In this document: in pieces, positions 1,076-16,159 of the stretch
Layout of the letters: each line of letters begins with the position of its first letter
Numbering within the stretch: the stretch's first letter is position 1
Assembly: GCF_001983995.1 (NCBI RefSeq)
Contig: NZ_CP019450.1
Coordinates: 1,798,001-1,862,000, forward strand
Source of the DNA: Halioglobus japonicus
Lineage (GTDB): Bacteria > Pseudomonadota > Gammaproteobacteria > Pseudomonadales > Halieaceae
Direction: 5' to 3'
Length of the DNA: 64,000 nucleotides
The notes under the pieces: model-generated
The model's input: the letters and a program-made list of their open reading frames with translations, nothing else
Told to the model about the DNA's origin: nothing
Database searches by the model: none
Program-made: the position numbers and the translations under genes

Positions 1076-1084
1076 GTCTCTGTT

Positions 1085-1166
1085 TTCTTAGAACTTCTGC
1101 GGATAGTGGGCGCTATTCTTAGAATAAATGGCGCTATTCGTAGAAAATTGAACCAATAGCTACGAA
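1085..1166 (+). promoter_or_regulatory. Phased operator array upstream of fadD3 (putative Lrp/AsnC site)
   Basis: Four copies of a near-palindromic 9-mer are seen: TTCTTAGAA at 1085-1093 and 1116-1124, TTCGTAGAA at 1137-1145, and AGCTACGAA (reverse-strand TTCGTAGCT) at 1158-1166. Start-to-start spacing is 31, 21 and 21 bases, close to three, two and two helical turns, so all boxes face one side of the DNA. The two middle boxes lie in a longer direct repeat beginning GGCGCTATTC. The array ends just upstream of a plausible -35 element. Such arrays are typical for Lrp/AsnC proteins, two of which are encoded in this operon. The regulator assignment is inference. Confidence 0.6.
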
Positions 1167-1172
1167 ATCCGG

Positions 1173-1201
1173 TTGTTGGCCCCGTCGAAGGCGCCTATGA
1201 T
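1173..1201 (+). promoter_or_regulatory. Putative promoter of the steroid operon
   Basis: A -10-like TATGAT at 1196-1201 lies 17 bases after a weak -35-like TTGTTG at 1173-1178. The weak -35 fits a promoter that needs activation. If transcription starts near 1208, the operator boxes centre near -46, -67, -88 and -119, typical of an activator. Confidence 0.4.
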
Positions 1202-1224
1202 GCATCTCACTCGAATGCAGAGGG

Positions 1225-2813
1225 ATGCCCGCAATCATGTCGGACGCCTACCAGCCCCGAACCCTGCCGCAGCTGGTCACCCAGGCCGCTGCCACTCATG
1301 GCGCACGCACGGCCATTACCGATGGCGATGTAACGCTTAGCTACACCCAGCTCGATGAGGCCCGGATTGCGGCCGGCCGGGCATTTATTGCTGCCGGGCT
1401 TGGGAAGGGCGACCGCATTGCCATCTGGGCTCCCAATATCTATCAGTGGATTATTGCCGCGATTGGTGCGCAGTCAGTAGGCGGCGTGCTGGTACCGCTG
1501 AATACCCGCATGAAAGGGGCAGAGGCGGCCTATGTGCTGCAAGCCAGCGGCGCGAAATTACTCTTTACCGTTGGCGACTTTCTGGGGGTGAACTACCCAG
1601 CACTGCTGCAGGAGCAGGCACTACCCGCGCTGGAGCAGGTGGTGATGCTAGACGGGGGTGACGGTGGAGTGTCTTGGGAGATATTTCTGGCCGAGGGCGA
1701 TTCTGTGGCTGCCCAAGAGGTGGCGGCCCGTGCCGATGAACTGACGCCAGATGATGTGCTCGACATCCTCTTTACATCCGGTACGACAGGCAATCCCAAG
1801 GGCGTGGTGACCTGTCATGGCCAAAATATCCGGACCTTTGAAAACTGGAGTGCTACGGTCGGTCTGCGCGCTGATGACAACTATCTGGTCATCAATCCCT
1901 TCTTCCATTCCTTTGGCTATAAAGCTGGCTGGCTGGCCTGCATTATCCGCGGCGCTCATATGTTGCCGGTAAAGAACTTCGACCTCGATGCGGTAATGGC
2001 GCAGATTGCCCGCGAACGTATCTCTATGATTCCCGGCCGCCAACGATTTACCAATCGCTGCTGGCGCACCCGCAGCGCGCTGACTATGACTTGTCCAGCC
2101 TTCGCCTTGCAGTGACTGGTGCTGCACCGGTCCCGGTTTCGCTGGTCGAGCAAATGCGTGAGGCGTTGGGCTTTGAGGTGGTCGTCACCGCTTATGGACT
2201 CACGGAATCCTGCGGCGTGGTGTCGATCTGTAGGGCCGATGACAGCGCGGAGCGCATTTCCCACAGTTCGGGAAAAGCCATGGACGGTGTTGAGATGAAA
2301 TGTGTCGACGCCGCCGGGACTACTGTGGCAGCTGGCCAAGAGGGCGAAATTTGGTTCCGCGGCTTCAACGTGATGCGCGGCTATCTCGATAACCCCGAGG
2401 AGACTGCGAAGACCGTGACCGTCGATGGTTGGCTCAAAACCGGTGACGTTGGCGTGATGGACGCAGAAGGTTATGTGCGCATTACCGACCGCATCAAGGA
2501 CATGTTTATCGTCGGTGGCTTCAACACCTATCCGGCAGAGATCGAAAATATTCTCTGTGGCATGCCCGGCGTGGCACGCGCTGCCGTCATTGGTGTGCCC
2601 GACGAGCGTATGGGTGAGGTCGCCCGGGCGTATATTGTGCGCGAGGCGGGTGCCGACCTTGATGAGGCCGCGGTCATTGCCTGGTCCCGCGAGCAAATGG
2701 CGAATTATAAGGTGCCCCGCAGCGTCGGATTCCTCGACGAGTTTCCCATGAACGCCGGTGGCAAAATCTTGAAGAATAACCTGCGCGACCTGGCGGCAAA
2801 GGAGCTGGCATGA
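1225..2813 (+). CDS. fadD3: HIP-CoA ligase FadD3-like (frameshifted)
   Basis: An acyl-CoA synthetase of the AMP-forming family, about 529 residues once one missing base is restored. The nucleotide-binding loop LFTSGTTGNPKGV is near residues 182-194. After the break come TAYGLTES, the hinge region GWLKTGDVGVMDAEGY with ITDRIKDMF, and a C-terminal catalytic lysine in GGKILKNN. The frame changes at about 2031-2041, where GGCCGCC should read GGCCCGCC; without it the reading stops at 2115. FadD3 activates HIP, the two-ring product left after rings A and B are removed. The assignment relies on the IpdABC and EchA20 genes downstream. ATG 1237 is an alternative start, since the AGAGGG motif directly abuts ATG 1225. 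Confidence 0.75.
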
Positions 2814-3304
2814 ACCTCGCCGCAACCAGCGACCAGTCTGCGCCGATTGAGCTCGACGCCACCGATGTGGGCATCATCGAGCTGCTGCGAGAAGACGGTC
2901 GCATGGCGTTCCGCGCCATAGCGCGAGAGCTGAATATTACTGAGGCCACCGTGCGCAGCCGGGTGCGCCGCCTCGAAGAATCAAACACCATGCGTGTCGT
3001 CGCCGTGACAGATACCCAGGCCGCTGGCTTTGACATGCTGTTGGCCGTAGGTGTGCAGGTAGAGGGCAGGGCGCCGGAAGAGGTTGCCCGCGACCTGGCC
3101 AGTATTCCTGAGGTGTTCTCGGTGAACGCAGTAGTAGGCGCTCACGATATAGAGATTCTTGTTGTGGCGCCTGATCAACAGGGCCTGAATGCACTGCTCA
3201 GTGACACCCTAGGTACCTTACCCGGTGTGCGCAAGTTAACCCCATCACTGGCGGTCGATGTACTCAAGAATCAACCGGACTGGGTGCCGTTTCATGACGC
3301 GTAG
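2810..3304 (+). CDS. Lrp/AsnC family transcriptional regulator (first copy)
   Basis: A 164-residue protein overlapping the fadD3 stop by ATGA. Residues about 20-65 form the AsnC-type helix-turn-helix (AIARELNITEATVRSRVRRL), and the remainder is a RAM/SAM-like effector and oligomerisation domain containing VFSVNAVVGAHDIEILV. An extension of about 18 residues precedes the HTH domain. The position inside a catabolic operon suggests it senses a pathway intermediate, amino acid or CoA ester and acts on the array at 1085-1166. Mycobacterial HIP genes use the TetR-type KstR2 instead. The family call is secure; the effector is unknown. Confidence 0.9.
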   Translation: MNLAATSDQSAPIELDATDVGIIELLREDGRMAFRAIARELNITEATVRSRVRRLEESNTMRVVAVTDTQAAGFDMLLAVGVQVEGRAPEEVARDLASIPEVFSVNAVVGAHDIEILVVAPDQQGLNALLSDTLGTLPGVRKLTPSLAVDVLKNQPDWVPFHDA

Positions 3305-3758
3305 GCTGGACGAGGTGGATGCCGCTATTGTTGAGCGTCTGGCGCCGGACGCCCGCATCAGCAATCGTGAAATTGCTGAGAGCCTGGGTGTGAGTGAAGG
3401 TACCGTGAGGGCGCGTATCAAGCGCATGGAAGAAGAACGCCAGGTGCGCATTACCGCGGTCACCAATATCGATCGCTTTGACAATCACGCGCTGGCCTAT
3501 ATCTGGATCGAGGTAGAGCGCAGTGACCAGGCGCGCGAGGTAGCGAGCCGACTGGCCGAAGTGGGAGAGCTGGGTTTTGTCGGCGTCATGCTGGGGCGCT
3601 CTGACATCCTGGCGATCACCATGGTCCGCAATGCCGAGCACCTGGCGCACTTTATTCACGACCGAATTACCAGCATCGAGGGCGTGCGTCGCACTGAAAG
3701 TACCCTCGGCGTCAATTTCATCAAACACGATTACCGCATGGCGCGGATCGTCAGTTAA
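3294..3758 (+). CDS. Lrp/AsnC family transcriptional regulator (second copy)
   Basis: A 154-residue paralogue of the preceding gene. Start ATG 3294 lies inside the end of that gene (11-base overlap) and gives the usual compact AsnC N-terminus MTRRLDEVDAAIVERL. The HTH is NREIAESLGVSEGTVRARI, followed by a RAM domain with LGFVGVMLGRSDILAITMV. An upstream in-frame start at 3258 adds residues with no family counterpart. The two translationally coupled Lrp-type proteins may form mixed dimers or octamers. The downstream spacer carries the ribosome-binding site of ipdA. Confidence 0.9.
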   Translation: MTRRLDEVDAAIVERLAPDARISNREIAESLGVSEGTVRARIKRMEEERQVRITAVTNIDRFDNHALAYIWIEVERSDQAREVASRLAEVGELGFVGVMLGRSDILAITMVRNAEHLAHFIHDRITSIEGVRRTESTLGVNFIKHDYRMARIVS

Positions 3759-3772
3759 GTAAGGAAAACGAC

Positions 3773-4644
3773 ATGAACAAGCAGATGACAGCGGCTGACG
3801 TTGTCGCTCAACTGGAAGATGGCATGACCATCGGCATTGGCGGTTGGGGCCGCGGCGCAAGCCGATGGCGCTGGTGCGGGAAATCCTGCGCTCTGACCTC
3901 AAGGATCTCACCGTAGTGTCCTACGGAGGCGCCGACGTGGGCATGCTCTGTGCGGCCGGCAAGGTGAAAAAGGTGGTATTCGCGTTTGTGTCACTGGATT
4001 TTATCCCGCTGGAGCCTTACTTCCGTCAGGCGCGTCAGTCAGGTGCCATCGAGGTGATGGAAATTGATGAGGGCATGATGTTGCTGGGGCTGCGCGCCGC
4101 TGCCTGGGGTGTGCCTTACATCCCCACCGAGGTTGGTCTGGGTACAGACATCGTGACCAAGAACCCCGACATCAAGGTGATTGATAGCCCTTACGATGAC
4201 AAAGAGTGGGTCGCCATGCCGGCACTGAAGCTCGACGCGTCATTGATTCACGCTGACCGCGCTGACGAGCGCGGGGTCTGCCAGATCGCCGGCCCCGATC
4301 ATTATATGGACGACTGGTTCGCTCGCGCCGCCGACAAAACCTTTGTCTCCTGTGACGAGCTGGTTGCCACCGAATACTTCCACGACCCTGCCCAGGCTCG
4401 CCTGGTGCACTGGGAACGCTCGCAGACGACAGGTGTGGTGCCTATTGCCGGTGGCGCGCACCCGACCTCTTGCTCACCGATGTATGGCTTCGATGTGCCC
4501 CACTTCAAGGCCTACACAGGTTCTGCGAAAGAGGGCGGTATCCAGGCGTACTTCGATAAGTACCTGGGTGCCTCTGAGGAGGAGTACCAGCAGAACGTCG
4601 GTGGCCTCGACGCCATCCGCGCCATTGAATTGCCCACTTACTGA
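3773..4644 (+). CDS. ipdA: Ring-opening hydrolase IpdA, CoA-transferase-like alpha subunit (frameshifted)
   Basis: ATG 3773 follows an AAGGA ribosome-binding site and opens with MNKQMTAADVVAQLEDGMTI, the usual start of a glutaconate-CoA-transferase-like alpha subunit. The frame breaks at about 3850, where GGGGCCGCGG should be GGGGCCCGCGG; restoring one C gives 290 residues and the continuous motif GIGGWGPRRKPMAL. Downstream of the break an open frame can also start at TTG 3844. IpdAB is a class I CoA-transferase homologue that opens the last steroid ring by hydrolysing COCHEA-CoA. The family's catalytic Glu lies near residue 105 in the mycobacterial protein; Glu100 here is the closest candidate but is unaligned. 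Confidence 0.8.
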
Positions 4645-4661
4645 TCGGCAAGGAGATCAAC

Positions 4662-5462
4662 ATGACTGTAGCAAGTGATTACACCCTGGCCGAACTCTGC
4701 ATCGTAGCGGCGAGCAAGGCTTTTGCCGATGAGGGCGAGGTTCTCGCGACCGGTATCGGTGTGATTCCCCGCCTGGCCGCGAGCCTGGCGATGAAAACCA
4801 CCAACCCCGACCTGATGATGACGGATTCAGAGGCCTGGATGCTCAGCGAGCCCAATCCGATTGGCAAGCGCGGCGAAGACCATATGCAGGCCAACGAGAG
4901 CTGGATGGGCTTTTCCCGCATTTTTGACAACGTCTGGAGCGGCAAGCGTCACGCCATGCTCGGCCCCACCCAGATCGACAAGTACGGCCAGACCAATACA
5001 TCTGCGCTGGGCGGCACCTATGAGGCGCCCAAGGTGATGATGCTGGGCGCCCGTGGATTCCCGGGTAATTCAATCTCTCACCCCAACAGCTTCTTTGTGC
5101 CCAGCCACAATACCCGCGTGTTCATGGACGGCGAGTGCGATTTCGTTTCCTCCATCGGCTACAACCCCGAGCGTCTGCCCAAGGGCCACAGCCTGGACGA
5201 TATCGATATCCGCCTGATTGTGACCGACCTGTGTGTTATGGATTTTGGTGGGCCGGATCACCAGATTCGCCTGGTATCCCTGCATCCCGGCGTCACCGCC
5301 GAGCAGGTGCAGGAAAACACGGCGTATGCCGTGCATATCGAAGGCGACATTCCCACCACCGAAGCGCCCACTGAGGAGCAGCTGGCGATCATCGCGCAAA
5401 TGGACCCGCACAATCAGCGCGCTTACCAGATCAAGGACAATCCTCCGGGCGTTCGGAGCTAG
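4662..5462 (+). CDS. ipdB: Ring-opening hydrolase IpdB, CoA-transferase-like beta subunit
   Basis: A 266-residue protein with a strong AAGGAG ribosome-binding site before ATG 4662. It carries the CoA-transferase beta-subunit fold, including GIGVIPRLAASLAM, LGARGFPGNSISHPNSFFVP and a C-terminal VSLHPGVTAEQVQENT stretch. It follows ipdA by 17 bases and should form the IpdAB heteromer, which cleaves ring C of the steroid remnant after EchA20 has opened ring D. Homologues in the Comamonas steroid cluster are called ScdL1L2. The pairing and the neighbours ipdC and echA20 make this more likely than glutaconate or 3-oxoadipate CoA-transferase. Confidence 0.85.
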   Translation: MTVASDYTLAELCIVAASKAFADEGEVLATGIGVIPRLAASLAMKTTNPDLMMTDSEAWMLSEPNPIGKRGEDHMQANESWMGFSRIFDNVWSGKRHAMLGPTQIDKYGQTNTSALGGTYEAPKVMMLGARGFPGNSISHPNSFFVPSHNTRVFMDGECDFVSSIGYNPERLPKGHSLDDIDIRLIVTDLCVMDFGGPDHQIRLVSLHPGVTAEQVQENTAYAVHIEGDIPTTEAPTEEQLAIIAQMDPHNQRAYQIKDNPPGVRS

Positions 5463-5465
5463 GCC

Positions 5466-6530
5466 ATGCTGCAAACGCGACTGACAGAACTGCTGGGCTG
5501 CCAATACCCCATCGTGCAAACCGCGATGGGGTGGGTGGCCGATCCACGCCTGGTAGCCGGTAGCTGTAATGCCGGTGGCTTTGGTTTTCTCGCCGGGGCG
5601 ACGATTCCCGCCGACGAAATGGAGCGCGATATCCTGCGGGTCAAGGAGCTGACCGATAAGCCCTTTGGTGTGAACTTCCATATGTATCAGCCGAATGCGG
5701 CTGGGATCGTGGATATGGTGATACGCCACGGCGTGAAGGCAGTCAGTTATTCGCGCTCACCGGGCCCGGACATGATTGCCAGGCTCAAGGACGCGGGCGT
5801 TATCTGTATGCCTACAGTCGGTCTGCCCAAGCACGCCATTAAGGCGGTGGAGCTCGGGGCTGATGTGGTCACCGTGCAGGGCGGTGAGGGTGGCGGCCAT
5901 ACCGGTGCCATTCCCACCACATTGCTGATTCCCCAGATTGTGGATGCGGTGGGCGACAAGGTGCCTGTGGTCGCAGCCGGTGGCTTCAAGGACGGTCGTG
6001 GCCTGACGGCAGCGCTGTCCTGGGGCGCCGATGGTATTGCCATGGGAACACGCTTCCTGATGACAGAGGAGAGCCCGGTTCCCCGGGAGACACTGCAGCG
6101 CTATATCGATTGTCGCAACCCCGGCGAGATTATTGTCTCTAAAGCCATGGATGGGTTGCCGCAACGCATGATCATGAATGAGTTGCTCACTGATCTTGAG
6201 AAAGCCGGGCCATTGAAAAAGCTGATGATAGCCCTGCGCAATGGTCTCGCGTTTCGCGAGCATACCGGTGCCACGTTCACGAGTCTGCTGAAGTCTGCCT
6301 GGCAAATGCATAACGATTCAGACCTCACCACGGCCCAGGCAATGATGTCGGCCAACGCCCCGATGATTATTCAGAAAGCCATGGTTGAGGGACACCCCTC
6401 TGAGGGTGTGCTGCCCTCCGGCCAGGTGGCCGGCGTGATTGACGAACTGCTCAGCTGTGAAGAGCTGATTCATTCCATTGTGAGCGAAGCCGAAGCGCGC
6501 CTCACAGCGCTCGCCCAGCGCGTTCAATAA
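5466..6530 (+). CDS. ipdC: IpdC, nitronate-monooxygenase-like flavoenzyme of HIP degradation
   Basis: A 354-residue TIM-barrel flavoprotein of the nitronate monooxygenase/2-nitropropane dioxygenase family, starting three bases after ipdB. Visible features are the N-terminal CQYPIVQTAMGWVADPRL, the FMN-phosphate region VQGGEGGGHTGAIPTT and VPVVAAGGFKDGRGLTAAL, and GADGIAMGTRFLMT. In steroid degraders IpdC is required to convert the 5-hydroxy-HIC-CoA intermediate before ring D hydrolysis; it is not a true nitronate oxidase. The operon position between ipdB and echA20 supports this. Cofactor use is inferred from the family. Confidence 0.85.
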   Translation: MLQTRLTELLGCQYPIVQTAMGWVADPRLVAGSCNAGGFGFLAGATIPADEMERDILRVKELTDKPFGVNFHMYQPNAAGIVDMVIRHGVKAVSYSRSPGPDMIARLKDAGVICMPTVGLPKHAIKAVELGADVVTVQGGEGGGHTGAIPTTLLIPQIVDAVGDKVPVVAAGGFKDGRGLTAALSWGADGIAMGTRFLMTEESPVPRETLQRYIDCRNPGEIIVSKAMDGLPQRMIMNELLTDLEKAGPLKKLMIALRNGLAFREHTGATFTSLLKSAWQMHNDSDLTTAQAMMSANAPMIIQKAMVEGHPSEGVLPSGQVAGVIDELLSCEELIHSIVSEAEARLTALAQRVQ

Positions 6531-6542
6531 CAGGAGCTGAAG

Positions 6543-7298
6543 ATGTCCAAGCCCTTTAATACCAGTATCGAGAACGGCATTGCCGAAATGATTCTGGATC
6601 ATCCCCCTGTCAATGCCTTTGACAGCGCAGGCTGGTTTGCGATTGCCGACGAGATCGACGCACTGGGCGTTAACGATGATGTTCGCGTGATTATCATCGG
6701 CTCTGCCAGCAAAGGTTTTTGTGCTGGCGTTGATATCAAGGAACTCGCCGCCGACGGCAGCAAGATCGTTGATGTGAACAAGGGGAATTACGAAACCTTT
6801 CGCGCGATTCACCGCAACCCCAAGCCGGTCATCGTTGCGCTACACAATTTTGTGCTCGGCGGTGGTATCGGCATGGCGGGCGCTGCGGACATCATTGTCT
6901 GCTCCGAATGTGCGCGCTTTGGTGTGCCTGAGATTGACCGCGGTGCCATGGGCGGTGGCGCTCATCTTCAGCGCATGTTCCCCGTACAAAAAGTGCGCTA
7001 CATGTACTTCACCGGTGAATTTATTGATGCGCAGGAAGCCTATCGCCTCGGTGCGGTCGAGAAGGTGGTTCCCCTTGAGGAATTGCTGCCCAATGCACGG
7101 GAGATTGCCGCAAAAATTGCCGACAAATCCCCCGCCATGGTCCGGCTCGCCAAAGAGGCGCTGACCGGTATCGAGGATGGCAATCTGGAAGACAAGTATC
7201 GTTGGGAGCAGGGCTTCACGCTCGAGGCCTATACGATGGGCGATTCGCAGGAATCACGCGACGCCTTTGTTGAGAAGCGCGACGCGAAATTCGATTGA
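6543..7298 (+). CDS. echA20: EchA20-like crotonase, ring D hydrolase
   Basis: A 251-residue crotonase-fold enzyme with ATG 6543 and an upstream AGGAGCTG ribosome-binding site. The oxyanion-hole segments are GFCAGVDIKEL and HNFVLGGGIGMAGAADI, followed by FGVPEIDRGAMGGGAHLQRM. In the HIP pathway EchA20 hydrolyses the carbon-carbon bond of ring D to give the substrate of IpdAB. The PEIDRGAMGGGAHL region differs from ordinary enoyl-CoA hydratases and, together with the gene order, supports the EchA20 assignment. A generic enoyl-CoA hydratase role is the main alternative. Confidence 0.8.
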   Translation: MSKPFNTSIENGIAEMILDHPPVNAFDSAGWFAIADEIDALGVNDDVRVIIIGSASKGFCAGVDIKELAADGSKIVDVNKGNYETFRAIHRNPKPVIVALHNFVLGGGIGMAGAADIIVCSECARFGVPEIDRGAMGGGAHLQRMFPVQKVRYMYFTGEFIDAQEAYRLGAVEKVVPLEELLPNAREIAAKIADKSPAMVRLAKEALTGIEDGNLEDKYRWEQGFTLEAYTMGDSQESRDAFVEKRDAKFD

Positions 7299-7307
7299 GA
7301 GTAAAGA

Positions 7308-8474
7308 ATGGACCTGAATTTTACTGAAGAGCAAAACGCATTTCGTGAAGAAGTGCGTAGCTGGCTGGCGGCCAATGTGCCGGCGCAGCCGCTGACTACC
7401 TTTGATACAGCCGAGGGCTTCGCGCAGCACCGCGAGTGGGAGGCCAAACTGAACGAAGGCCGCTGGGGCATGGTGACCTGGCCTGAAGAACTGGGCGGCC
7501 GCAGCTGCGACCTGATCGAGTGGCTGATTTTCGAAGAAGAATACTACAAGGCGCGCGCGCCGCTGCGGGTGAACCAGAACGGTATTTTTCTGCTCGGCCC
7601 CACCCTGATGGAGTACGGCACCGAAGAACAAAAGGCGCGCATTCTGCCGAAGATGGCGACCGGTGAAGAGGTCTGGGCCCAGGGTTGGTCTGAGCCCAAT
7701 GCCGGATCAGACATGGCGGCTATCCGCTCCACTGCGCGCCTGGAAGGGGATAAGTACATTATTAACGGCCAGAAAACCTGGTCTACCCGGGCGGTCTGGG
7801 CTGACTGGTGTTTTGGTATGTTCCGCACCGATCCTGATTCGGAACGTCATCGCGGTTTGACGTTTATTCTGGTGCCGCTGGATTCACCGGGTATTACGGT
7901 GCGGCCCATCCCCCAGCTGGACGGCCTGCCGGGTTTTGCAGAAATATTCTTTGATAACGTGGAAGTGGATGTTTCCAATCGCCTCGGTGACGAGGGCGCT
8001 GGCTGGAGTGTGGCTATGGCGACCGCAGGTTTTGAACGCGGCTTGATGTTGCGCTCTCCTGCGCGGTTCCAGGAAACCGCCCGTCGCCTGGTAGAACTCT
8101 ACAAGGAAAATCGCGCCTCGGCGGATCGCGATCCGTCGGTGAAGGATGCCGTGTTGCGTGCCTACATGGACGCAGAGAGCTATTGCCTCACCACCTATCA
8201 AACTGCCTGTCGCCTGAACAAAGGCGGCAAAATTGGTGCAGAGTCCTCAACGAACAAGATCTTCTGGTCTGAGCTCGATCAAAACATGCACGCGACTGCT
8301 ATGAGCATTCTCGGTGCCCGGGCAGAGCTATTGTCCCATGCGCCAGATGCGAAAGGGGTGGGCACCTGGTTGGATGGGTGGCTGTTTTCCCAGTCCGGTC
8401 CCATTTATGCCGGGACTAACGAAGTCCAGAGAAACATTATTGCCGAGCGCATGCTCGGTATGCCGAGGAAGTAA
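7308..8474 (+). CDS. Acyl-CoA dehydrogenase, pair 1 large subunit
   Basis: A 388-residue acyl-CoA dehydrogenase (FadE30/31 type) with GWSEPNAGSDMAAI for flavin and substrate binding, KTWSTRAVWADWC, and the C-terminal PIYAGTNEVQRNIIAERMLG. The medium-chain-type catalytic Glu before GT is replaced by Ala (YAGT), but a Glu is present in helix G (AGFERGLML), the isovaleryl/long-chain type position. It is followed three bases later by a smaller dehydrogenase lacking that Glu, so the two probably form a mixed alpha2-beta2 enzyme. It should act in beta-oxidation of HIP-CoA or of the ring-opened product. Confidence 0.85.
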   Translation: MDLNFTEEQNAFREEVRSWLAANVPAQPLTTFDTAEGFAQHREWEAKLNEGRWGMVTWPEELGGRSCDLIEWLIFEEEYYKARAPLRVNQNGIFLLGPTLMEYGTEEQKARILPKMATGEEVWAQGWSEPNAGSDMAAIRSTARLEGDKYIINGQKTWSTRAVWADWCFGMFRTDPDSERHRGLTFILVPLDSPGITVRPIPQLDGLPGFAEIFFDNVEVDVSNRLGDEGAGWSVAMATAGFERGLMLRSPARFQETARRLVELYKENRASADRDPSVKDAVLRAYMDAESYCLTTYQTACRLNKGGKIGAESSTNKIFWSELDQNMHATAMSILGARAELLSHAPDAKGVGTWLDGWLFSQSGPIYAGTNEVQRNIIAERMLGMPRK

Positions 8475-8477
8475 GTC

Positions 8478-9524
8478 ATGGATTTCACTTTTAGCGAAGA
8501 TCAATTGCTGTTCCAGGATTCCGTGCGCGACTTTCTAGTCAACGAAATTACGCCTGAGCGCATTCGCTCAAGCTGGGATACCGAGACGGGTCGCAGCCAG
8601 GAGCTATGGGCGCAGCTCGCGGAGTTGGGTCTGACGGGACTTACTGTCCCGGAAGCCTTCGGTGGGCTGGGCATGAGCGAACTCGATTTCGTATTGTTGG
8701 CACAGGAGTGCGGCTACGTGGCCCTGCCGGAGCCGCTGGTTAACAGTGTGCTTGTAGCGGTGCCGCTCCTGAAGACCATCGGTGGCGACCTGGCGGAACA
8801 ATGGTTGCCACAGGTGGCCACTGGCGAGGCGCGGGTTGTTGCCGGTATTGAGCAAAATTTGCTGGCGGAAGACGCACATGTGGCTGACCTGGTGCTGTGG
8901 TACACAGAAGGTAGCTGGTATGCGCTGACCCAGGAGCAGATGACGCTACAACACAACGAGTCGGTTGACCCCTCACGCAGGCTGTTCAGTGTGAGTGTGA
9001 ATAGCGACGTCGATGCGGTAGCAAATGGCGAACAGGCAGCGACGCTGCTGGAAGCTGCTCTCAATCGTGGGGCGCTCGGCGCCGCGGCGCAAGCGCTTGG
9101 TCTGGCCCAGCGCATGATCGATATCTCTGTTCAATATACCAGCGAGCGGCAGCAGTTCGGCCAGGCCATCGGTACCTTTCAGGCTGTCAAACATCACATG
9201 GCCAATGTTGCTGTGCGCCTTGAATATGCCAAGGCGCCAGTGCATCGCGCGGCTTACAGCATTGCTCATGGCGAAGCCGTTGCAGCTCATGCGGTGTCGC
9301 AGGCCAAACTGATGGCCTGTGAGGCGGCCAATCTTGCGGCCAAGAACTGTCTTCAGGTGCATGGGGCCATGGGTTACACCTGGGAAGTTGATCTGCATAT
9401 CTTTATGAAAAAAGCCTGGGCAATGGCCAATACCTGGGGCGACGCTGCGTATCACAAAGAGCGCGTGGCAGAACACATTTTTGCGGACGGTGCGGCACTC
9501 GGTGCCGACGGCACGCTCGGCTAA
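8478..9524 (+). CDS. Acyl-CoA dehydrogenase, pair 1 small subunit
   Basis: A 348-residue acyl-CoA dehydrogenase, shorter than its partner. The N-terminal helical domain (FTFSEDQLLFQDSVRDFL) and the C-terminal helical domain with YTSERQQFGQAIGTFQAVKH and QVHGAMGYTWEVDLHIFMKK are clear, whereas the middle beta domain is reduced. Neither known position for the catalytic Glu carries one: helix G reads NRGALGAAAQALG. In mycobacterial steroid FadE pairs one subunit brings the catalytic base and the other helps hold FAD. The three-base spacing to its partner supports that reading. Confidence 0.85.
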   Translation: MDFTFSEDQLLFQDSVRDFLVNEITPERIRSSWDTETGRSQELWAQLAELGLTGLTVPEAFGGLGMSELDFVLLAQECGYVALPEPLVNSVLVAVPLLKTIGGDLAEQWLPQVATGEARVVAGIEQNLLAEDAHVADLVLWYTEGSWYALTQEQMTLQHNESVDPSRRLFSVSVNSDVDAVANGEQAATLLEAALNRGALGAAAQALGLAQRMIDISVQYTSERQQFGQAIGTFQAVKHHMANVAVRLEYAKAPVHRAAYSIAHGEAVAAHAVSQAKLMACEAANLAAKNCLQVHGAMGYTWEVDLHIFMKKAWAMANTWGDAAYHKERVAEHIFADGAALGADGTLG

Positions 9525-9539
9525 GTAAGGAGATTAGAA

Positions 9540-10688
9540 ATGGCAGATGCTTATATTGTAGATGCGGTGCGTTCACCTACCGGGCGACGCAAAGGCGGGC
9601 TGGCTCACGTGCATGGCGCCGACCTGGGCGCGCATGTGCTCAAGACACTGGTAGCGCGCAACAGTATTCCCGACGATGAGTATGACGATGTGATGTTTGG
9701 CTGTGTCGACACGATCGGGCCGCTGGCGGGCGATATTGCCCGTACCTGCTGGTTGGCTGCCGGTCTTTCCGATGTGGTGCCGGGAACCACGATTGATCGT
9801 CAGTGTGGTTCGTCACAGCAGGCTGTGCATTTCGCCGCACAGGCCATTATGGCCGGCGTGAACGATGTTGTGATTGCCGGCGGTGTGCAAACTATGACGC
9901 AGATTCCGATCTCGTCTGCGATGATCGCGGCTGAGCCGCTGGGCTTCAGCGATCCTTTCACCGGTTCCAAGGGCTGGGTAGAGCGCTACGGCGATGTACC
10001 CCCGACCCAGTTCCGCTCGGCGCAGATGATAGCGGACAAGTGGGAGTTGTCGCGCGAAGATCTCGAAGTCTATTCGCTTGAATCCCACACCCGTGCGCTG
10101 AAGGCAATTAAAGAAGGTCGCTTTGATCGCGAGATCGCACCGCTGGAAGGGGTGACCATGGACGAGACACCGCGCGAATCCACCCTCGAGAAAATGGCGG
10201 AGCTGGGCTATCTGTTTGGCTGCGACAAGGTCACTGCGGGTGTGTCCAGCCAGACCTGCGATGGATCTTCCGCCATGTTGATCGTGTCAGAAGAGGCGCT
10301 TAAGCGCTACAACCTGACCCCTCGTGCACGTATCGCGCATATGAGTGTGCGCGCTGCGGATCCTATCTGGATGCTGACTGCGCCGATTCCCGCCACGGAA
10401 TACGCTTTGAAAAAGACCGGCATGAGCATGAGCGATATCGATCGTGTGGAAATCAATGAGGCGTTTGCCTCTGTGGCCATGGCCTGGCTGAAGGAAACCG
10501 GTTACGACCACGAAAAAACCAATGTGAATGGCGGTGCGATTGCCCTTGGTCATCCGCTGGGTGCCACGGGTACCAAGCTGATGACCACATTGCTGCATGA
10601 ACTCGAGCGCAGCGGTGGTAAGTACGGCCTGCAAACCATGTGTGAAGGGGGTGGTCAGGCCAACGTCACCATCCTGGAAAGATTGTAA
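9540..10688 (+). CDS. fadA6: FadA6-like thiolase
   Basis: A 382-residue thiolase with all three catalytic blocks: the nucleophile Cys in DRQCGSSQQAVHFAAQA, the His in NVNGGAIALGHPLGATG, and the second Cys in QTMCEGGGQANVTI. From memory, it closely resembles Mycobacterium tuberculosis FadA6 in DRQCGSSQQA, SAMIAAEPLGF, ARAADP-type and GGAIALGHPLGATG stretches, and in length. FadA6 performs thiolysis in HIP side-chain removal and in breakdown of the opened ring. A ribosome-binding site AAGGAG precedes ATG 9540. Confidence 0.8.
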   Translation: MADAYIVDAVRSPTGRRKGGLAHVHGADLGAHVLKTLVARNSIPDDEYDDVMFGCVDTIGPLAGDIARTCWLAAGLSDVVPGTTIDRQCGSSQQAVHFAAQAIMAGVNDVVIAGGVQTMTQIPISSAMIAAEPLGFSDPFTGSKGWVERYGDVPPTQFRSAQMIADKWELSREDLEVYSLESHTRALKAIKEGRFDREIAPLEGVTMDETPRESTLEKMAELGYLFGCDKVTAGVSSQTCDGSSAMLIVSEEALKRYNLTPRARIAHMSVRAADPIWMLTAPIPATEYALKKTGMSMSDIDRVEINEAFASVAMAWLKETGYDHEKTNVNGGAIALGHPLGATGTKLMTTLLHELERSGGKYGLQTMCEGGGQANVTILERL

Positions 10689-10702
10689 GAAGGAATAGAT
10701 TG

Positions 10703-11590
10703 ATGAGTGGAATTCTCGAAGGACGCGTCGCGATTGTCACTGGCGCTGGTGGCGGCCTGGGTGCTGCCCACGCAAAGGTCTTTGCCAGCGAAGGCTGTGC
10801 CGTGATCGTTAACGACATTAACACTGATGCCGCTCAGGCGGTTGTCGATGACATCGTTGCCGCTGGCGGCAGGGCGGAGGTCAACAGCTCCGACATTACT
10901 CACTATGACGACAGCCTTAACGCTATCAAGCAGGCTATCGACGGCTTTGGCGGCCTGCACATTGTGCTTAACAACGCCGGCATCAACCGTGACCGTATGT
11001 TCGCCTCCATGACCGAGGCAGAGTGGGACGCGATTATGAGTGTGCACCTCAAGGGGCATTTCTGCATGAGCTCGCATGCTGTTCACTACTGGCGCGGTCA
11101 GGCCAAAGAAGGCAATACCGTTGATGCTCGCATTATCAATACCACTTCAGGGGCCGGTCTTCAGGGCTCTATCGGTCAGTCTAACTACGCAGCCGCCAAG
11201 GCGGGTATTGCCGCGCTGACCTTGAACCAGGCTGCGGAGCTGGGACGTTATGGTATTACAGCGAATGCGATCGCGCCCTCTGCGCGTACTGGCATGACCA
11301 CCGCAGTGCCGGAAATGGCCGAGCGCATGAAGAAGCCCGACGACGGCAGCTTTGACCACTTCGCACCTGAGAATGTTTCCAACCTGCTGGCCTGGCTGGC
11401 ATCGCCCGCCGCGGCGAACGTGTCCGGTCGTGTATTTGAAGCTGAGGGTGGCCGCATTTGTATCTGCGACGGCTGGCGCACAACCGACGGCGTCGATCGC
11501 GGCGCTGCCTGGGCGCCCGCCGAGATCGGCGAGGCGATGGAAGAGCTGCTGGCCAAGGAATCCCCCGCGCAAAAAGTCTGGGGTACCTGA
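10703..11590 (+). CDS. Short-chain dehydrogenase (HSD17B4-like)
   Basis: A 295-residue SDR beginning at ATG 10703, chosen over TTG 10700 because it sits properly behind AAGGAA. The NAD-binding motif is TGAGGGLG, NNAG follows, and the active-site Ser-Tyr-Lys is in TTSGAGLQG and NYAAAK. The sequence and C-terminal extension resemble hydroxyacyl-CoA dehydrogenase domains of peroxisomal multifunctional enzyme type 2 and SDRs of actinobacterial steroid clusters. It probably oxidises a beta-hydroxyacyl-CoA or ring hydroxyl in C/D-ring breakdown. The exact step is not resolved. A long inverted repeat follows the stop codon. Confidence 0.8.
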   Translation: MSGILEGRVAIVTGAGGGLGAAHAKVFASEGCAVIVNDINTDAAQAVVDDIVAAGGRAEVNSSDITHYDDSLNAIKQAIDGFGGLHIVLNNAGINRDRMFASMTEAEWDAIMSVHLKGHFCMSSHAVHYWRGQAKEGNTVDARIINTTSGAGLQGSIGQSNYAAAKAGIAALTLNQAAELGRYGITANAIAPSARTGMTTAVPEMAERMKKPDDGSFDHFAPENVSNLLAWLASPAAANVSGRVFEAEGGRICICDGWRTTDGVDRGAAWAPAEIGEAMEELLAKESPAQKVWGT

Positions 11591-11595
11591 TCCAA

Positions 11596-11653
11596 AAATG
11601 GGGGACAGACCCCATTTTTTGAAGAGCAAAAAACGGGGTCTGTCCCCCCATTT
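11596..11653. repeat. Inverted repeat with GGGGACAGACC core (REP-like)
   Basis: Two arms face each other in the 74-base gap between two operon genes. The left arm (11596-11619) contains ATGGGGGACAGACCCCAT, itself nearly palindromic, and the right arm (11628-11653) contains CGGGGTCTGTCCCCCCAT. RNA from here would fold into a strong hairpin with a short loop. The same GGGGACAGACC core occurs at 42859-42983, so it is a dispersed element. It could reduce expression of the downstream acyl-CoA dehydrogenases or protect the upstream mRNA. Confidence 0.75.
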
Positions 11654-11664
11654 AGAGAACGACG

Positions 11665-12837
11665 ATGGAATTTGCATTTACTGAAGAGCAGGAAATGATC
11701 CGCGATACCGCGGAGGCTTTCCTTGCTGAGGTGTCTACCAGCGAGGCCGTGCGTTCAGCGATGGCCACTGAAGCCGGTTATGACGCCGAGCTATGGCAGC
11801 GTATCTGCGGCGAAATGTACTGGCAGGCTATTCACATTCCCGAAGAGTACGGGGGTATGGGGCTGGGGTATGTCGAAGTCGTTGCGATGATGGAACAAAT
11901 GGGCCGCTATCTGCTGTGTTCACCATTTTTTGCCACGGTCTGCCAGGGAGCGAATGCGTTGCTGCTGGCCGGCAGCGATGAGCAAAAAACGCATTGGCTG
12001 GGCAAGCTTTGTGAAGGTGGGCTCACAGCCACCATCGCCAGCAATGGTGGCGTCTCAAGTTGGGGACCGGAGTCGGTGACAGCCACCTGGCGACGCGACG
12101 GCGATGCCTATGTTCTTGATGGCAGCTATCGCTATGTGATCGACGGCCATACAGCACAGTTGATTGTGGTCGCTGCTCGTGAAGTAGGCAGTGAGGAAGA
12201 AAGCGGTATCAGTCTTTTCCTGTTGCCCGCAGATACCCCGGGACTGAGCCGGGAATGGCTGCCCACCATGGACCAGACACGCAAGCAGGCGGCACTGTCT
12301 TTGGATGGCGTGCGCCTCGAAGCCGATGCCCTGCTGGGTGACGCCGGCTCTGGTTGGGCAGTGCTGAGCCAGGTGCAGGATTTGGCGGCCATTGCGCTCG
12401 CGGCAGAGCAGGTTGGTGGCTGCCAGCAGTTGCTCGATAGCGCGGTTGAATACACCAGTGAGCGGGTCCAGTTTGGCCGTACCATTGCCAGCTTCCAGGC
12501 CGTGAAGCACAAGGCTGCTGACATGATGCTGCTGACCGAAGTAGCGCGCTCGGCGATTTACTACGCCGCCTGTGTTGCACAGGAGGCACTGCAAGGCACA
12601 GAGCTGGCTGCGGAGTTGCCCGAGGCGGCGAGCGTGGTTAAGTCCTATTGTTCCGATGCCTACTTCGCTATCGCCGGTGACACGCTGCAGTTGCATGGGG
12701 GTGTTGGTTTTACCTGGGAATACGACGTGCACCTGTATTTCAAGCGAGCGAAGTCGTCCGAACAGTTATTGGGTAATGGTACGCAGCATCGCGAGCGCCT
12801 GGCCGCACAACTGCTGGACGCGGAGGACGCGGCATGA
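11665..12837 (+). CDS. Acyl-CoA dehydrogenase, pair 2 subunit without catalytic Glu
   Basis: A 390-residue acyl-CoA dehydrogenase beginning FAFTEEQEMIRDTAEAFLAE. C-terminal helices carry YTSERVQFGRTIASFQAVKH and QLHGGVGFTWEYDVHLYFKR. The helix G segment reads DLAAIALAAEQVGG, with Ala where isovaleryl-type enzymes have catalytic Glu, and no Glu is visible at the medium-chain position. The stop overlaps the start of the next dehydrogenase by four bases (ATGA), so subunits are made in step. It likely forms a heteromer with that product. Confidence 0.85.
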   Translation: MEFAFTEEQEMIRDTAEAFLAEVSTSEAVRSAMATEAGYDAELWQRICGEMYWQAIHIPEEYGGMGLGYVEVVAMMEQMGRYLLCSPFFATVCQGANALLLAGSDEQKTHWLGKLCEGGLTATIASNGGVSSWGPESVTATWRRDGDAYVLDGSYRYVIDGHTAQLIVVAAREVGSEEESGISLFLLPADTPGLSREWLPTMDQTRKQAALSLDGVRLEADALLGDAGSGWAVLSQVQDLAAIALAAEQVGGCQQLLDSAVEYTSERVQFGRTIASFQAVKHKAADMMLLTEVARSAIYYAACVAQEALQGTELAAELPEAASVVKSYCSDAYFAIAGDTLQLHGGVGFTWEYDVHLYFKRAKSSEQLLGNGTQHRERLAAQLLDAEDAA

Positions 12838-14036
12838 AACTGAGTTTTAGCCCGGAAGATGAAAAGTTCCGTGAAGAGATTGCTGGCTGGTTGAGCCAGA
12901 ACCTGACCGGTGAGTTTGAGAAACTGAAGTATCGCGGCGGCCCTGGTGATGAGCACATGTATCCGCAAGAGCGTCAGGGCTGGGAAAAGAAACTAGCCGA
13001 GGGCGGCTGGACCTGCGTGGGTTGGCCCGAGGAGCACGGCGGTCGCGGCTGCAGTATCGAGCAGCAGGTCATCTTTTTTGAAGAGTATGCCCGCGCCGGT
13101 GCGCCGGGCCGCGTAGGACACATTGGCGAAGGATTGGCCGGTCCTACCATTATTGCCTTTGGTACCGAAGAGCAGAAACGTAAGTACCTGCCAGGTATTG
13201 TGGCCGGTACTGAGCTGTGGTGTCAGGGATACTCGGAACCGAGCGCCGGTTCAGACCTGGCAAACGTGAAAACCAAGGCCCGCTTTGACCAAGCAAAGGG
13301 CAAGTGGATTATCAATGGACAGAAGGTGTGGACCTCATTGGCTCACGAGTCCGACTACTGTTTCGTCATCGCCCGAACAGACCCGGATTCTGTGGCGCAC
13401 AAGGGCCTGGGCTTCTTCCTGATCAAAATGGATCAGCCGGGAATCGATGTTCGTCCTATTGAGCAAATCACGGGCACCTCCGAATTCAACGAAGTGTTTT
13501 TTGACGACGCCGAATGCGACGCCACAGATATAGTTGGCGCGCCCGGCGAGGGCTGGAAGGTGGCCATGGGGCTGCTCGGCTTTGAGCGTGGCGTCTCCAC
13601 CCTGGGCCAGCAAATGCAATTCCAGAACGAGCTGGATGAAGTCGTCAAAGTTGCGAAATCCAATGGCGCCGCCAGTGACCCTGTGATTCGCCAGCGAATT
13701 GCCAAGGCACACGCTGAACTCAAGATCATGCGCTACAACGCCATGCGTATGTTGTCGGGCCAAAGTGGCTCAGATGGTTCGCTGCAGAAGGAAGCGCTGA
13801 TTTACAAGTTGTTCTGGGCTACGTGGCACCGCAGTCTGGGTGAACTCGCTATGGATGTGATGGGCCCTGAATGTGAGATTCTGGAGGGCGGCCCGTATGA
13901 GCTGAGTCGCCTGCAGTCCATGTATCTATTTGTGCGCTCCGACACGATTTATGGCGGCACCAATCAGATCCAGAGAAATATCATCGCCGAGCGCGGTTTG
14001 GGCATGCCCAAGGAACCAAAGGGAAAAGCAGTATGA
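12834..14036 (+). CDS. Acyl-CoA dehydrogenase, pair 2 catalytic subunit
   Basis: A 400-residue acyl-CoA dehydrogenase with WCQGYSEPSAGSDLANV, INGQKVWTSLAHESDYC and the C-terminal TIYGGTNQIQRNIIAERGLG. As in pair 1, the medium-chain Glu position is Gly (YGGT), while helix G has Glu in LGFERGVSTLG. Together with the overlapping upstream gene it repeats the arrangement seen at 7308-9524. It is a candidate for FadE30-type oxidation of HIP-CoA or a later step; sequence alone does not separate them. The stop overlaps the next SDR gene by four bases. Confidence 0.85.
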   Translation: MKLSFSPEDEKFREEIAGWLSQNLTGEFEKLKYRGGPGDEHMYPQERQGWEKKLAEGGWTCVGWPEEHGGRGCSIEQQVIFFEEYARAGAPGRVGHIGEGLAGPTIIAFGTEEQKRKYLPGIVAGTELWCQGYSEPSAGSDLANVKTKARFDQAKGKWIINGQKVWTSLAHESDYCFVIARTDPDSVAHKGLGFFLIKMDQPGIDVRPIEQITGTSEFNEVFFDDAECDATDIVGAPGEGWKVAMGLLGFERGVSTLGQQMQFQNELDEVVKVAKSNGAASDPVIRQRIAKAHAELKIMRYNAMRMLSGQSGSDGSLQKEALIYKLFWATWHRSLGELAMDVMGPECEILEGGPYELSRLQSMYLFVRSDTIYGGTNQIQRNIIAERGLGMPKEPKGKAV

Positions 14037-14824
14037 GTCTTAAAAAGCCGGAGTATGTCCCCGGGCATGGCCTGATCAAAGGTAAGTCTGTACTGATTAC
14101 CGCAGCAGCCGGTGCTGGCATTGGTTTTTCTGCTGCAACCAAGGCCGCAGAGGAGGGCGCCCGCGCCATTGTGCTGAGCGATATCCACGAGGAGCGCCTG
14201 GAAGCAGCGGTCGAAAAGCTGAAGCAGGATACAGGTCTGACCGAGGTTTATGGCAAGACCGGTAACGTCGCCGTAGAAGAGGATGTACAGGCGCTGGTCG
14301 ATTTTGCCGAGGAAACACTTGGCGGGGTTGATATCCTGATTAACAACGCCGGCCTAGGCACGTCAAAGCTGCTGATCGATATGGAAGACGACGAGTGGCA
14401 CAAGGTGATTGACGTCACGCTTAACGGCACCATGCGGATGACGCGTTACATGATGAAGGTGATGAAGGCCCGGGGCGAAGGCGGTGTTATCGTTAACAAC
14501 GCTTCGGTGCTGGGTTGGCGGGCACAAAAAGAGCAGGCGCATTACGCCGCGGCCAAAGCCGGTGTTATGGCGCTGACTCGCTGCGCTGCGCTGGAAGCTG
14601 CAGAGTTTGACGTGCGGATTAACGCTGTATCGCCGTCGATTGTATTGCATCCCATGCTGCGTAAGTCAGCCTCTGAGGAACTTCTCGAGGAGCTTGAGTC
14701 CAAAGAGGCCTACGGTCGCGCAGCAGAGGCCTGGGAAGTCGCCAATGTCATGATGTTCCTGGCTTCCGATTATTCAAGTTATATGACTGGCGAGATTGTC
14801 TCTGTGTCCAGTCAGCGTTCCTGA
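14033..14824 (+). CDS. ipdF: IpdF-like short-chain dehydrogenase
   Basis: A 263-residue SDR with the unusual cofactor motif [16 protein letters not shown] in place of TGxxxGIG. This TAAAGxGIGF form is characteristic of actinobacterial Ipd[10 protein letters not shown] and the catalytic YAAAK (with NNASVLGWR for Ser) are present. IpdF is the beta-hydroxyacyl-CoA dehydrogenase of HIP side-chain oxidation. ATG 14033 overlaps the preceding stop. The assignment uses the motif from memory plus context; another SDR role in the pathway cannot be excluded. Confidence 0.75.
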
Positions 14825-14850
14825 TCCATTTATCTCAAGGGGAGAAAACC

Positions 14851-16053
14851 ATGAGAGAAGCAGTTATCGTATCCACCGCCCGCACCGGCCTGGCTAAATC
14901 ATTCCGCGGTGGTTTTAACAATACTGAAGCGCCGGCCATGGGTGGTCACGTCGTGCGCGCTGCCGTAGAGCGGGCCGGTATCGACGCCGCTGAAGTCGAC
15001 GATTGTATTTTCGGTGCCGCCGCTCAGCAGGGTACCCAGGGTTACAACATTGGCCGCCTGTGCGGCGTTGCCGGTGGCCTGCCTAAAACAGTGGCAGGGA
15101 TGTCCATGGACCGCCAGTGTTCCTCCGGCCTGATGTCGATCGCCACTGCCGCCAAGAGCATTATGTGCAATGAGTATGACATTGCTGTCGCCGGTGGTGT
15201 GGAGTCCATCTCGCTGGTTCAGACCAAGCACAAGAATACCCACAAGGCGGTCTCTGAGACTGTTACCGCTATCGACCCCACGGCCTACATGCCGATGCTG
15301 GAAACCGCTGAGGTGGTCAGCGATCGCTACGGCATCAGCCGCGAGTCCCAGGATGAGTACTCGTTGCAGAGCCAGCAGCGCGTTGCCGCTGCCCAGGAAG
15401 CCGGCCTGTTTGCCGATGAAATTGTGCCTATGAATGCCACCATGGCCGTGTTCAATCGCGAGACCAAGGAGACGACCTTCCAGGAAACGGTGGTGGACCG
15501 TGATGACTGCAACCGCCCCAGTACGACTCTGGAAAGCCTGGCTTCATTGGAGCCGGTCTTCAAGGATGGCCAATGGGTGAAAGAAGGCCACTTTATTACG
15601 GCGGGCAACGCCTCCCAGCTCTCCGATGGCGCCTCAGCCTGTGTAGTTATGGACAGCAAACTGGCTCAGCAGAAGGGGCTGGCCCCACTGGGTATTTATC
15701 GTGGTCTGGCGGTGGCTGGCTGCAAATCCGACGAGATGGGCATCGGTCCTGTGTTCGCCGTACCCAAATTGCTCAAACGCCACGGCCTGAGCATTAATGA
15801 CATTGATCTGTGGGAACTTAATGAGGCGTTTGCTTGTCAGGTTATCTACAGTCGTGACCAGTTGGGCATTGACAATGACAAGCTGAACGTGAATGGCGGC
15901 TCTATTGCTATTGGCCACCCCTTCGGCATGAGCGGGGCGCGCATGGTCGGTCACGCCCTGATCGAAGGTAAGCGCCGCGGAGCAAAATACGTGGTTGTCA
16001 CCATGTGTATTGGTGGCGGCATGGGTGCTGCAGGCTTGTTCGAGGTCGCCTGA
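14851..16053 (+). CDS. Acetyl-CoA acyltransferase (thiolase)
   Basis: A 400-residue thiolase with the nucleophile Cys in [17 protein letters not shown], His in [17 protein letters not shown], and Cys in [13 protein letters not shown]. It is the last gene of the steroid operon, preceded by AAGGGGAGAA. Unlike the FadA6-type thiolase at 9540, it has the standard CSSG block of broad-range degradative thiolases. It could handle side-chain thiolysis or the final cleavage to acetyl-CoA and succinyl-CoA-type products. Confidence 0.85.
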
Positions 16054-16088
16054 TACCTCCCATTGTCATTGCATCTACTGCTACAATG

Positions 16089-16114
16089 GCGGCCATTCCA
16101 TCCGGGGTGGCCGC
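16089..16114 (+). terminator. Weak hairpin at the end of the steroid operon
   Basis: The arms GCGGCCA (16089-16095) and TGGCCGC (16108-16114) can pair across a 12-base loop 36 bases after the last thiolase stop. Only three T residues follow, so termination may be partial or factor-dependent. No other terminator is seen before gspE. Confidence 0.35.
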
Positions 16115-16159
16115 TTTCCGGTCGCGCTGATGAAATTTTAAACAGCTGCCTGGAGCACA

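What the first reader, a model, noticed from the sequence alone, without database searches (positions are those of the whole stretch)
1085..1166. Four helically phased boxes: a probable Lrp/AsnC operator for steroid catabolism
Four TTCKTAGAA-type boxes occur at intervals of 31, 21 and 21 bases, directly upstream of a weak promoter for fadD3, and two Lrp/AsnC genes lie in the same operon. Helical phasing fits DNA wrapping round an Lrp octamer. Known HIP-pathway control in actinobacteria uses KstR2 of the TetR family, so this would be a different control scheme.
Basis: partly seen in the sequence, partly recalled or inferred. Interest (0 to 1): 0.72.

Follow-up and report, generated by a model that had tools for sequence, protein, structure and literature searches.

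The report
Conserved switch site for steroid-degradation genes
Upstream of a marine bacterium's genes for breaking down the last steroid rings lies a small mirror-image DNA site, kept almost unchanged in many related bacteria and found together with the same pair of regulator genes, so it is very probably the on/off switch of steroid breakdown in these bacteria, whose control was largely unknown.

Summary
The boxes are real, but the conserved unit is not a four-box array. Boxes 3 and 4 (box 4 inverted) form one dyad, TTCGTA-N18-TACGAA (1137-1166), ending 6 bp before a weak -35. Of 53 scorable fadD3 upstream regions (window, 51 named relatives, one unnamed), 49 have exact TKCGTA-N18-TACGMA, three have one mismatch and one has spacing 19; 0 of 10,600 mononucleotide shuffles do. 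The degenerate motif occurs once in the 4.1-Mb genome. All 17 fadD3-lrp1-lrp2 loci fetched from other families of the order carry it, four with one mismatch. It follows the Lrp pair: 26 of 26 ipdA+ genomes with the pair have it, 0 of 11 without. In two distant genomes with the pair it precedes kshA, once with one mismatch. Boxes 1 and 2 are genus-level accessories; an unlisted half-site (1095-1105) makes four sites 21 bp apart. Best reading: Lrp1 and Lrp2, probably together, bind the dyad and control, probably activate, the HIP operon. Binding, sign and ligand are inferred.

The parts
1135..1168 (.). core operator: inverted repeat TATTCGTA-N18-TACGAAAT (half-sites TTCGTA 1137-1142 and TACGAA 1161-1166; dyad axis 1151.5)
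   Evidence: 49 of 53 fadD3 upstream regions have exact TKCGTA-N18-TACGMA, 3 one mismatch, 1 spacing 19; 17 of 17 fetched fadD3-lrp1-lrp2 loci outside the family, 13 exact and 4 one mismatch; degenerate motif once in the own genome
1114..1126 (.). box 2, accessory site TATTCTTAGAATA (odd-centred perfect palindrome)
   Evidence: site at the same place in 3 of 8 same-genus loci
   Evidence: offset -40 on the minus strand, best-scoring upstream offset in the genus, z = 4.7 over 8 loci, above the cut in 5 of 8
1085..1093 (+). box 1, accessory site TTCTTAGAA
   Evidence: in only one other same-genus locus of 8, L094
1173..1178 (+). -35 element TTGTTG, 6 bp after the dyad
   Evidence: same offset scored in 52 loci; mean 3.15 of 6 consensus matches
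1196..1201 (+). -10 element TATGAT, 29 bp after the dyad
   Evidence: same offset scored in 52 loci; mean 4.08 of 6 consensus matches, the best of the offsets 50 to 71
1225..2813 (+). fadD3 (HIP-CoA ligase), reading frame broken near 2020-2035; ORFs 1225-2115 and 2091-2813
2810..3304 (+). lrp1, Lrp/AsnC-family regulator
   Evidence: Pfam PF13404 and PF01037 above cut-off; fold match to Lrp structures
3258..3758 (+). lrp2, Lrp/AsnC-family regulator, overlapping lrp1 (in-frame ATG at 3294 also possible)
   Evidence: Pfam PF13404, PF22482 and PF01037 above cut-off; translation
3844..16053 (+). rest of the HIP operon: ipdA, ipdB, ipdC-like, enoyl-CoA hydratase, acyl-CoA dehydrogenases, fadA6-like thiolase, SDRs, second thiolase

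Best explanation
The conserved element is the operator of the operon's own two Lrp/AsnC regulators. Lrp1 and Lrp2, probably as a mixed oligomer, place two dimers 21 bp (two helical turns) apart on the inverted pair TKCGTA-N18-TACGMA just upstream of a weak -35, and so control, most likely activate, transcription of fadD3-lrp1-lrp2-ipdAB and the rest of the HIP operon. A steroid-ring intermediate such as HIP-CoA would be the signal. In this genus further weak half-sites upstream, in 21-bp register, probably extend the complex. Shown here: conservation, position, uniqueness in the genome, co-occurrence with the regulator pair. Inferred: binding, mixed oligomer, activation, ligand.
For: Half-sites are 83-89% identical pairwise across 52 loci, against 43% in the spacer and 30% upstream. 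49 of 53 loci have the exact dyad at spacing 18; 0 of 10,600 mononucleotide shuffles. In 618 kb of named loci there is one other exact hit, a second copy upstream of fadD3 in L051, and 0 in reversed sequence. 17 of 17 other-family fadD3-lrp1-lrp2 loci, 13 exact and 4 with one mismatch; reversed control: 0 exact, 4 with one mismatch, against 15 and 10. Where the pair sits elsewhere the site does too: before kshA and in the fadD3/SDR gap in G074, and near kshA, a TonB receptor and SDR genes in G989 of another class. The motif is unique in G000, as expected for a local regulator. Of nine paralogous Lrp pairs, none has an exact site and one (L198) has a one-mismatch site nearby that I count as uncertain. 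Lrp sites of 13-17 bp with centres two or three turns apart are known (PMC2995911, section read). A dyad next to a poor -35 with a better -10 fits an activator.
Against: No binding data. The halves are conserved as 8-bp outer arms; the inner arms are only A/T-rich, so each is not a clean 13-bp Lrp palindrome. Both HTH regions are strongly conserved, so base changes could not be assigned to one protein. The 11 Lrp-less clusters have more distant fadD3 and other gene orders, and in two of them (G043, G053) fadD3 was not in the fetched stretch. Second sites near ipdA, kshA and TonB genes do not keep the fadD3 promoter spacing. In G051 the dyad precedes the lrp genes, not fadD3, and the -35-like hexamer is shifted; in G300 the two sites have one mismatch each and neither is before fadD3. 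One-mismatch sites also fall inside genes, such as in acad4 of G074. The window's own kshA locus has no such site.
Confidence: 0.82

Rival explanations
1. Same operator and regulators, but repression: the Lrp pair holds the promoter shut and a HIP-derived ligand releases it, as KstR2 does in actinobacteria.
For: KstR2 is a repressor of the same pathway released by HIP-CoA (PMC8399759 and PMC5380842, passages). Lrp proteins can repress, and bind by wrapping DNA (PMC2995911, passages).
Against: The dyad stays clear of -35 and -10 (ends 6 bp before -35) and the -35 averages 3.15 of 6 matches, the layout of an activated promoter.
Confidence: 0.3
2. The dyad is bound by an unrelated regulator encoded elsewhere, and the Lrp genes only happen to be in the operon.
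For: No binding data; Lrp-less clusters must be controlled by something, and none of 10 ORFs checked in or near them was a recognised regulator.
Against: 26 of 26 against 0 of 11 association; the site moves with the Lrp pair to kshA loci; a single site in the genome fits a local regulator.
Confidence: 0.1
3. The four boxes together form one octamer-wrapped operator.
For: In the window four sites are 21 bp apart (centres 1099, 1120, 1141, 1162), and the -40 half-site scores above the cut in 5 of 8 genus loci.
Against: Over 52 loci the best upstream offsets (-16, -15, -10) have mean scores near -21.6, no half-site match, although they stand out from the other offsets (z about 3.5). Box 1 and box 2 occur in 2 and 3 of 8 genus loci.
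Confidence: 0.25
4. The repeats are a transcription terminator or RNA element of the upstream hydrolase gene, or chance.
For: They lie just after an upstream gene that ends at 1075.
Against: No terminator-like site; 18-nt spacer and no T-run; the dyad persists where the hydrolase gene is further away or not found; 0 of 10,600 shuffles.
Confidence: 0.02

Closest known systems
KstR2 (TetR-family repressor of the actinobacterial HIP regulon)
   Same: Controls fadD3, ipdAB, ipdC, fadA6 and related genes; one pathway-specific regulator for HIP catabolism (PMC5380842, passages).
   Different: TetR family and repressor; homologues reported absent from bile-acid-degrading Proteobacteria (PMC8399759, passages). 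Here two Lrp/AsnC proteins and another operator.
TesR/TeiR and HsdR of Comamonas testosteroni
   Same: Positive regulators of steroid degradation in Proteobacteria (PMC8399759 and PMC6678751, passages).
   Different: Reported there as a membrane protein acting through a kinase cascade and as a LysR-type regulator; not Lrp/AsnC. Presence of either in the window's genome was not tested.
Archaeal and bacterial Lrp/AsnC regulators (FL11, Ss-LrpB, LysM, E. coli Lrp)
   Same: HTH plus RAM domains; sites two or three helical turns apart with A/T-rich centres (PMC2995911).
   Different: Known natural sites are described there as degenerate and the effectors named in the passages read are amino acids; here a near-invariant dyad of fixed spacing, two paralogues in tandem, and a steroid pathway.
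Tandem Lrp/AsnC genes in a Sphingobium sp. Chol11 bile-salt cluster
   Same: Two contiguous Lrp/AsnC genes in a steroid catabolic cluster (PMC12882949, passages).
   Different: The passage names no operator or target for them and suggests amino-acid metabolism; orthology to the pair here was not tested.

Membership tests
Lrp/AsnC family (Lrp1, Lrp2) | AsnC-type HTH plus RAM ligand-binding domain | tested here: met
   PF13404 and PF01037 above gathering score in both; Lrp1 model (mean pLDDT 72.7) matches Lrp/AsnC structures, best 7fby E 8.3e-13
Lrp-type operator | 13-17 bp imperfect inverted repeat per dimer with A/T-rich centre | tested here: inconclusive
   Box 2 is one; in the core dyad only the outer 8 bp of each site are conserved, inner part A/T-rich
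Lrp-type operator | site centres two or three helical turns apart | tested here: met
   21 bp for core and box 2, 31 bp for box 1 to box 2 (criterion)
Lrp-type operator | bound by an Lrp/AsnC protein | not testable with these tools
   only co-occurrence: 26 of 26 against 0 of 11
HIP catabolic operon | fadD3, ipdA, ipdB, ipdC, fadA6 and acyl-CoA dehydrogenases together | tested here: met
   fadD3 assigned by its two halves, each below the full-length cut-off; ipdA and ipdB by CoA-transferase domains and conserved order
KstR2 regulon | TetR-family KstR2 encoded with the cluster | tested here: not met
   no TetR family among the matches shown for 18 proteins scanned from 239 to 17899; the regulators found are Lrp/AsnC; genome-wide absence not tested

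The most novel reading that the evidence does not exclude
Steroid catabolism in many Gammaproteobacteria and some other Proteobacteria is run by one ancient two-protein Lrp switch: a mixed Lrp1-Lrp2 oligomer that senses a steroid-CoA intermediate and reads TKCGTA-N18-TACGMA, controlling the HIP operon in Halieaceae-type bacteria and kshA, uptake and SDR genes in other lineages, a counterpart of the KstR/KstR2 system from a different protein family.
Probability: 0.45. Interest if true: 0.8.

Novelty: new variant of a known kind. Interest (0 to 1): 0.64.

Why it matters
A 2021 review calls distinct regulatory mechanisms in bile-acid-degrading Proteobacteria still largely unknown and reports no KstR1/KstR2 homologues there (PMC8399759, passages), although Halieaceae and Spongiibacteraceae are reported as marine steroid degraders with isolates (PMC5790920, passages). 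This gives a precise regulator pair, a base-level operator and target genes that one gel shift can test, and a motif for finding steroid regulons in uncharacterised genomes. It would also be an Lrp/AsnC system devoted to a steroid pathway rather than to amino acids.

Tried and rejected
Terminator or RNA element: rejected. Four-box array as the conserved unit: rejected outside the genus. Assigning half-sites to Lrp1 or Lrp2 through T/G covariation with HTH residues: not decisive; Lrp1 residue 46 is N in 18 of 34 T/T loci and 1 of 18 loci with a G, but the groups may simply follow descent. Further targets in the window's own genome: none convincing; of two one-mismatch hits one lies inside an ORF and one is not near the start of any ORF of 100 aa or more, and the kshA locus has no site below two mismatches. 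A replacement regulator in Lrp-less clusters: not found among 10 ORFs checked. The AlphaFold model of Lrp1 is moderate (mean pLDDT 72.7, pTM 0.49) and was used for fold only. Literature: listings; passages or one section of seven papers were read, none whole, and the other listed papers were not opened.

Full report
Setting. The window lies at C1:1798001-1862000 of a 4.1-Mb genome. The nearest named records by Lrp1 are HTCC2148, Pseudohalioglobus, Seongchinamella, Haliea, Halioglobus and others; I infer that the window belongs to the Halieaceae. From 1225 to 16053 the main ORFs run the same way: fadD3, two Lrp/AsnC genes, ipdA, ipdB, an ipdC-like enzyme, an enoyl-CoA hydratase, several acyl-CoA dehydrogenases, a fadA6-like thiolase, SDRs and a second thiolase. 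This is the pathway for the last two steroid rings. Upstream are pyruvate-dehydrogenase genes, an amylase-like gene, a trans-2-enoyl-CoA reductase and a hydrolase; none of the seven proteins scanned upstream of the window matched a regulator family at the cut-off used.

Observation. The fourth box is an inverted copy. Seen this way, boxes 3 and 4 are the arms of one dyad, TTCGTA-N18-TACGAA, at 1137-1166.

Conservation. I took the region upstream of fadD3 from the 57 loci. Five of them gave no fadD3 match and one (L036) is cut by the contig end; with the window and L094 (genome G002) 53 regions remain. 49 of 53 carry exact TKCGTA-N18-TACGMA, three (L037, L038, L055) one mismatch, and L047 a 19-bp spacer. 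No other spacing from 8 to 30 is found in more than one locus. Arms are 83-89% identical pairwise over 52 loci, the spacer 43%, the sequence before 30%. At a fixed distance after the dyad stand a -35 (3.15 of 6 consensus matches on average) and a -10 (4.08 of 6) in the 52 loci measured; in 5 of the 52 the -10 hexamer has 3 matches or fewer. One locus, L025, is labelled Halioglobus japonicus BC5_1, probably the sponge isolate BC51 listed among steroid degraders in PMC5790920 (passages); that identity is inferred from the name.

Link to the Lrp pair. Among 58 related genomes 37 have ipdA. Of these, 26 have the Lrp pair and all 26 have the dyad: 16 by pattern at the expected distance upstream of lrp1, G051 with one mismatch, and nine through the matching named locus, identified by contig coordinates, one of these (G023 = L047) with the 19-bp spacer. 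In the other 11, the fetched stretches (183 kb) hold no TKCGTA-N18-TACGMA at up to one mismatch. These 11 clusters also differ in fadD3 similarity and gene order, so the contrast is not free of phylogeny.

Wider range. An order-wide search found Lrp1 matches in 31 of 341 genomes, 22 of them outside the family. Two of the 22 (G044, G051) had been fetched before; I fetched stretches from the other 20. Seventeen stretches hold fadD3-lrp1-lrp2 and all 17 have the dyad upstream of fadD3, 13 exact and 4 with one mismatch; two of the 17 (L180, L185) repeat named loci (L055, L054). In G559 the cluster lies on a short contig that ends before fadD3 (L208). Four other stretches hold paralogous pairs; three have no site and L198 has a one-mismatch site about 130 bp before its lrp1. 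Five further paralogous pairs in the family have none at one mismatch. In 14 outside-family fadD3 promoters the -10-like hexamer sits at the same offset in 10 and, read by eye, one base nearer in 4. A class-wide sample gave 2 further genomes of 369: in G074 the pair is in an operon led by kshA with the dyad 64 bp before it, plus a second exact dyad between divergent fadD3 and an SDR, and a one-mismatch match inside acad4; in G300 there are two one-mismatch sites, before an acyl-CoA-dehydrogenase-like gene and before a TonB receptor, and none before fadD3. A phylum-wide sample gave one new genome of 398, G989, in another class: the pair is next to kshA, with one exact site and three one-mismatch sites, near an SDR-MFS pair, kshA, a TonB receptor and another SDR.

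Accessory boxes. Scoring with the half-site matrix in the 8 genus loci singles out an inverted half-site at -40 (z = 4.7; above the cut in 5 of 8) and, weaker, box 2 at -21 (z = 2.9; 3 of 8); box 1 is seen in 2 of 8. Over 52 loci no upstream offset shows a half-site; the best have mean scores near -21.6, though they stand out from the rest (z about 3.5), perhaps from A/T-richness. So the array is a genus-level addition to a family-wide dyad, in the 21-bp register that Lrp proteins are known to use (PMC2995911, section read).

Mechanism. The dyad centre lies at about -56 from the expected start of transcription (inferred from the -10), clear of the promoter elements, next to a poor -35: an activator layout, though Lrp proteins can also repress. 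One exact degenerate site in the genome fits a regulator that controls its own operon. The two Lrp genes overlap in the window and both were found in the 52 loci where they could be looked for, which fits a mixed oligomer. The ligand is unknown; HIP-CoA is the effector of KstR2 in actinobacteria (PMC5380842, passages) and is the natural first candidate.

Novelty. KstR1 and KstR2 homologues are reported absent from bile-acid-degrading Proteobacteria (PMC8399759, passages); the regulators described there and in PMC6678751 (passages) are TesR/TeiR and HsdR of Comamonas. The only mention of tandem Lrp genes in a steroid cluster that I found is for Sphingobium Chol11, without operator (PMC12882949, passages). 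The AsnC mentions in PMC6498646 concern aromatic and amino-acid gene clusters (passages). In the listings I saw no title, abstract start or passage that describes this system; the library lacks most subscription journals. I file it as a new variant of a known kind: Lrp/AsnC control, but with a paired regulator, a strict operator and a steroid pathway.

Noticed in passing
window 1225-2813: The fadD3 reading frame is broken near 2020-2035 (two overlapping ORFs), a sequencing error or a real lesion.
   Followed up: partly
L005 7046-7842: ipdA of HTCC2148 is split into two frames near 7375.
   Followed up: no
L102 2472-2501 and L051 3317-3346: This relative (G034) carries a second copy of the operator, 29 of 30 bases alike, 971 bp further upstream.
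   Followed up: partly
L195 9983-10012, L185 4256-4285, L156 6784-6813, L208 1892-1921: Some lineages have a second operator-like site between lrp2 and ipdA (exact in L195, one mismatch in the others), without the fadD3 promoter spacing in the three measured.
   Followed up: partly
L165-L169, L192, L193, L197, L198: Other tandem Lrp pairs (29-44% identical to this one) occur in the same and related families; their targets are unknown.
   Followed up: partly
window 1095-1136: A 21-nt direct repeat (71% identical) suggests that the accessory boxes arose by tandem duplication.
   Followed up: no
window 19705-19713: A further TTCGTAGAA lies inside a pilin-like ORF (19591-20055) and is probably chance.
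   Followed up: yes
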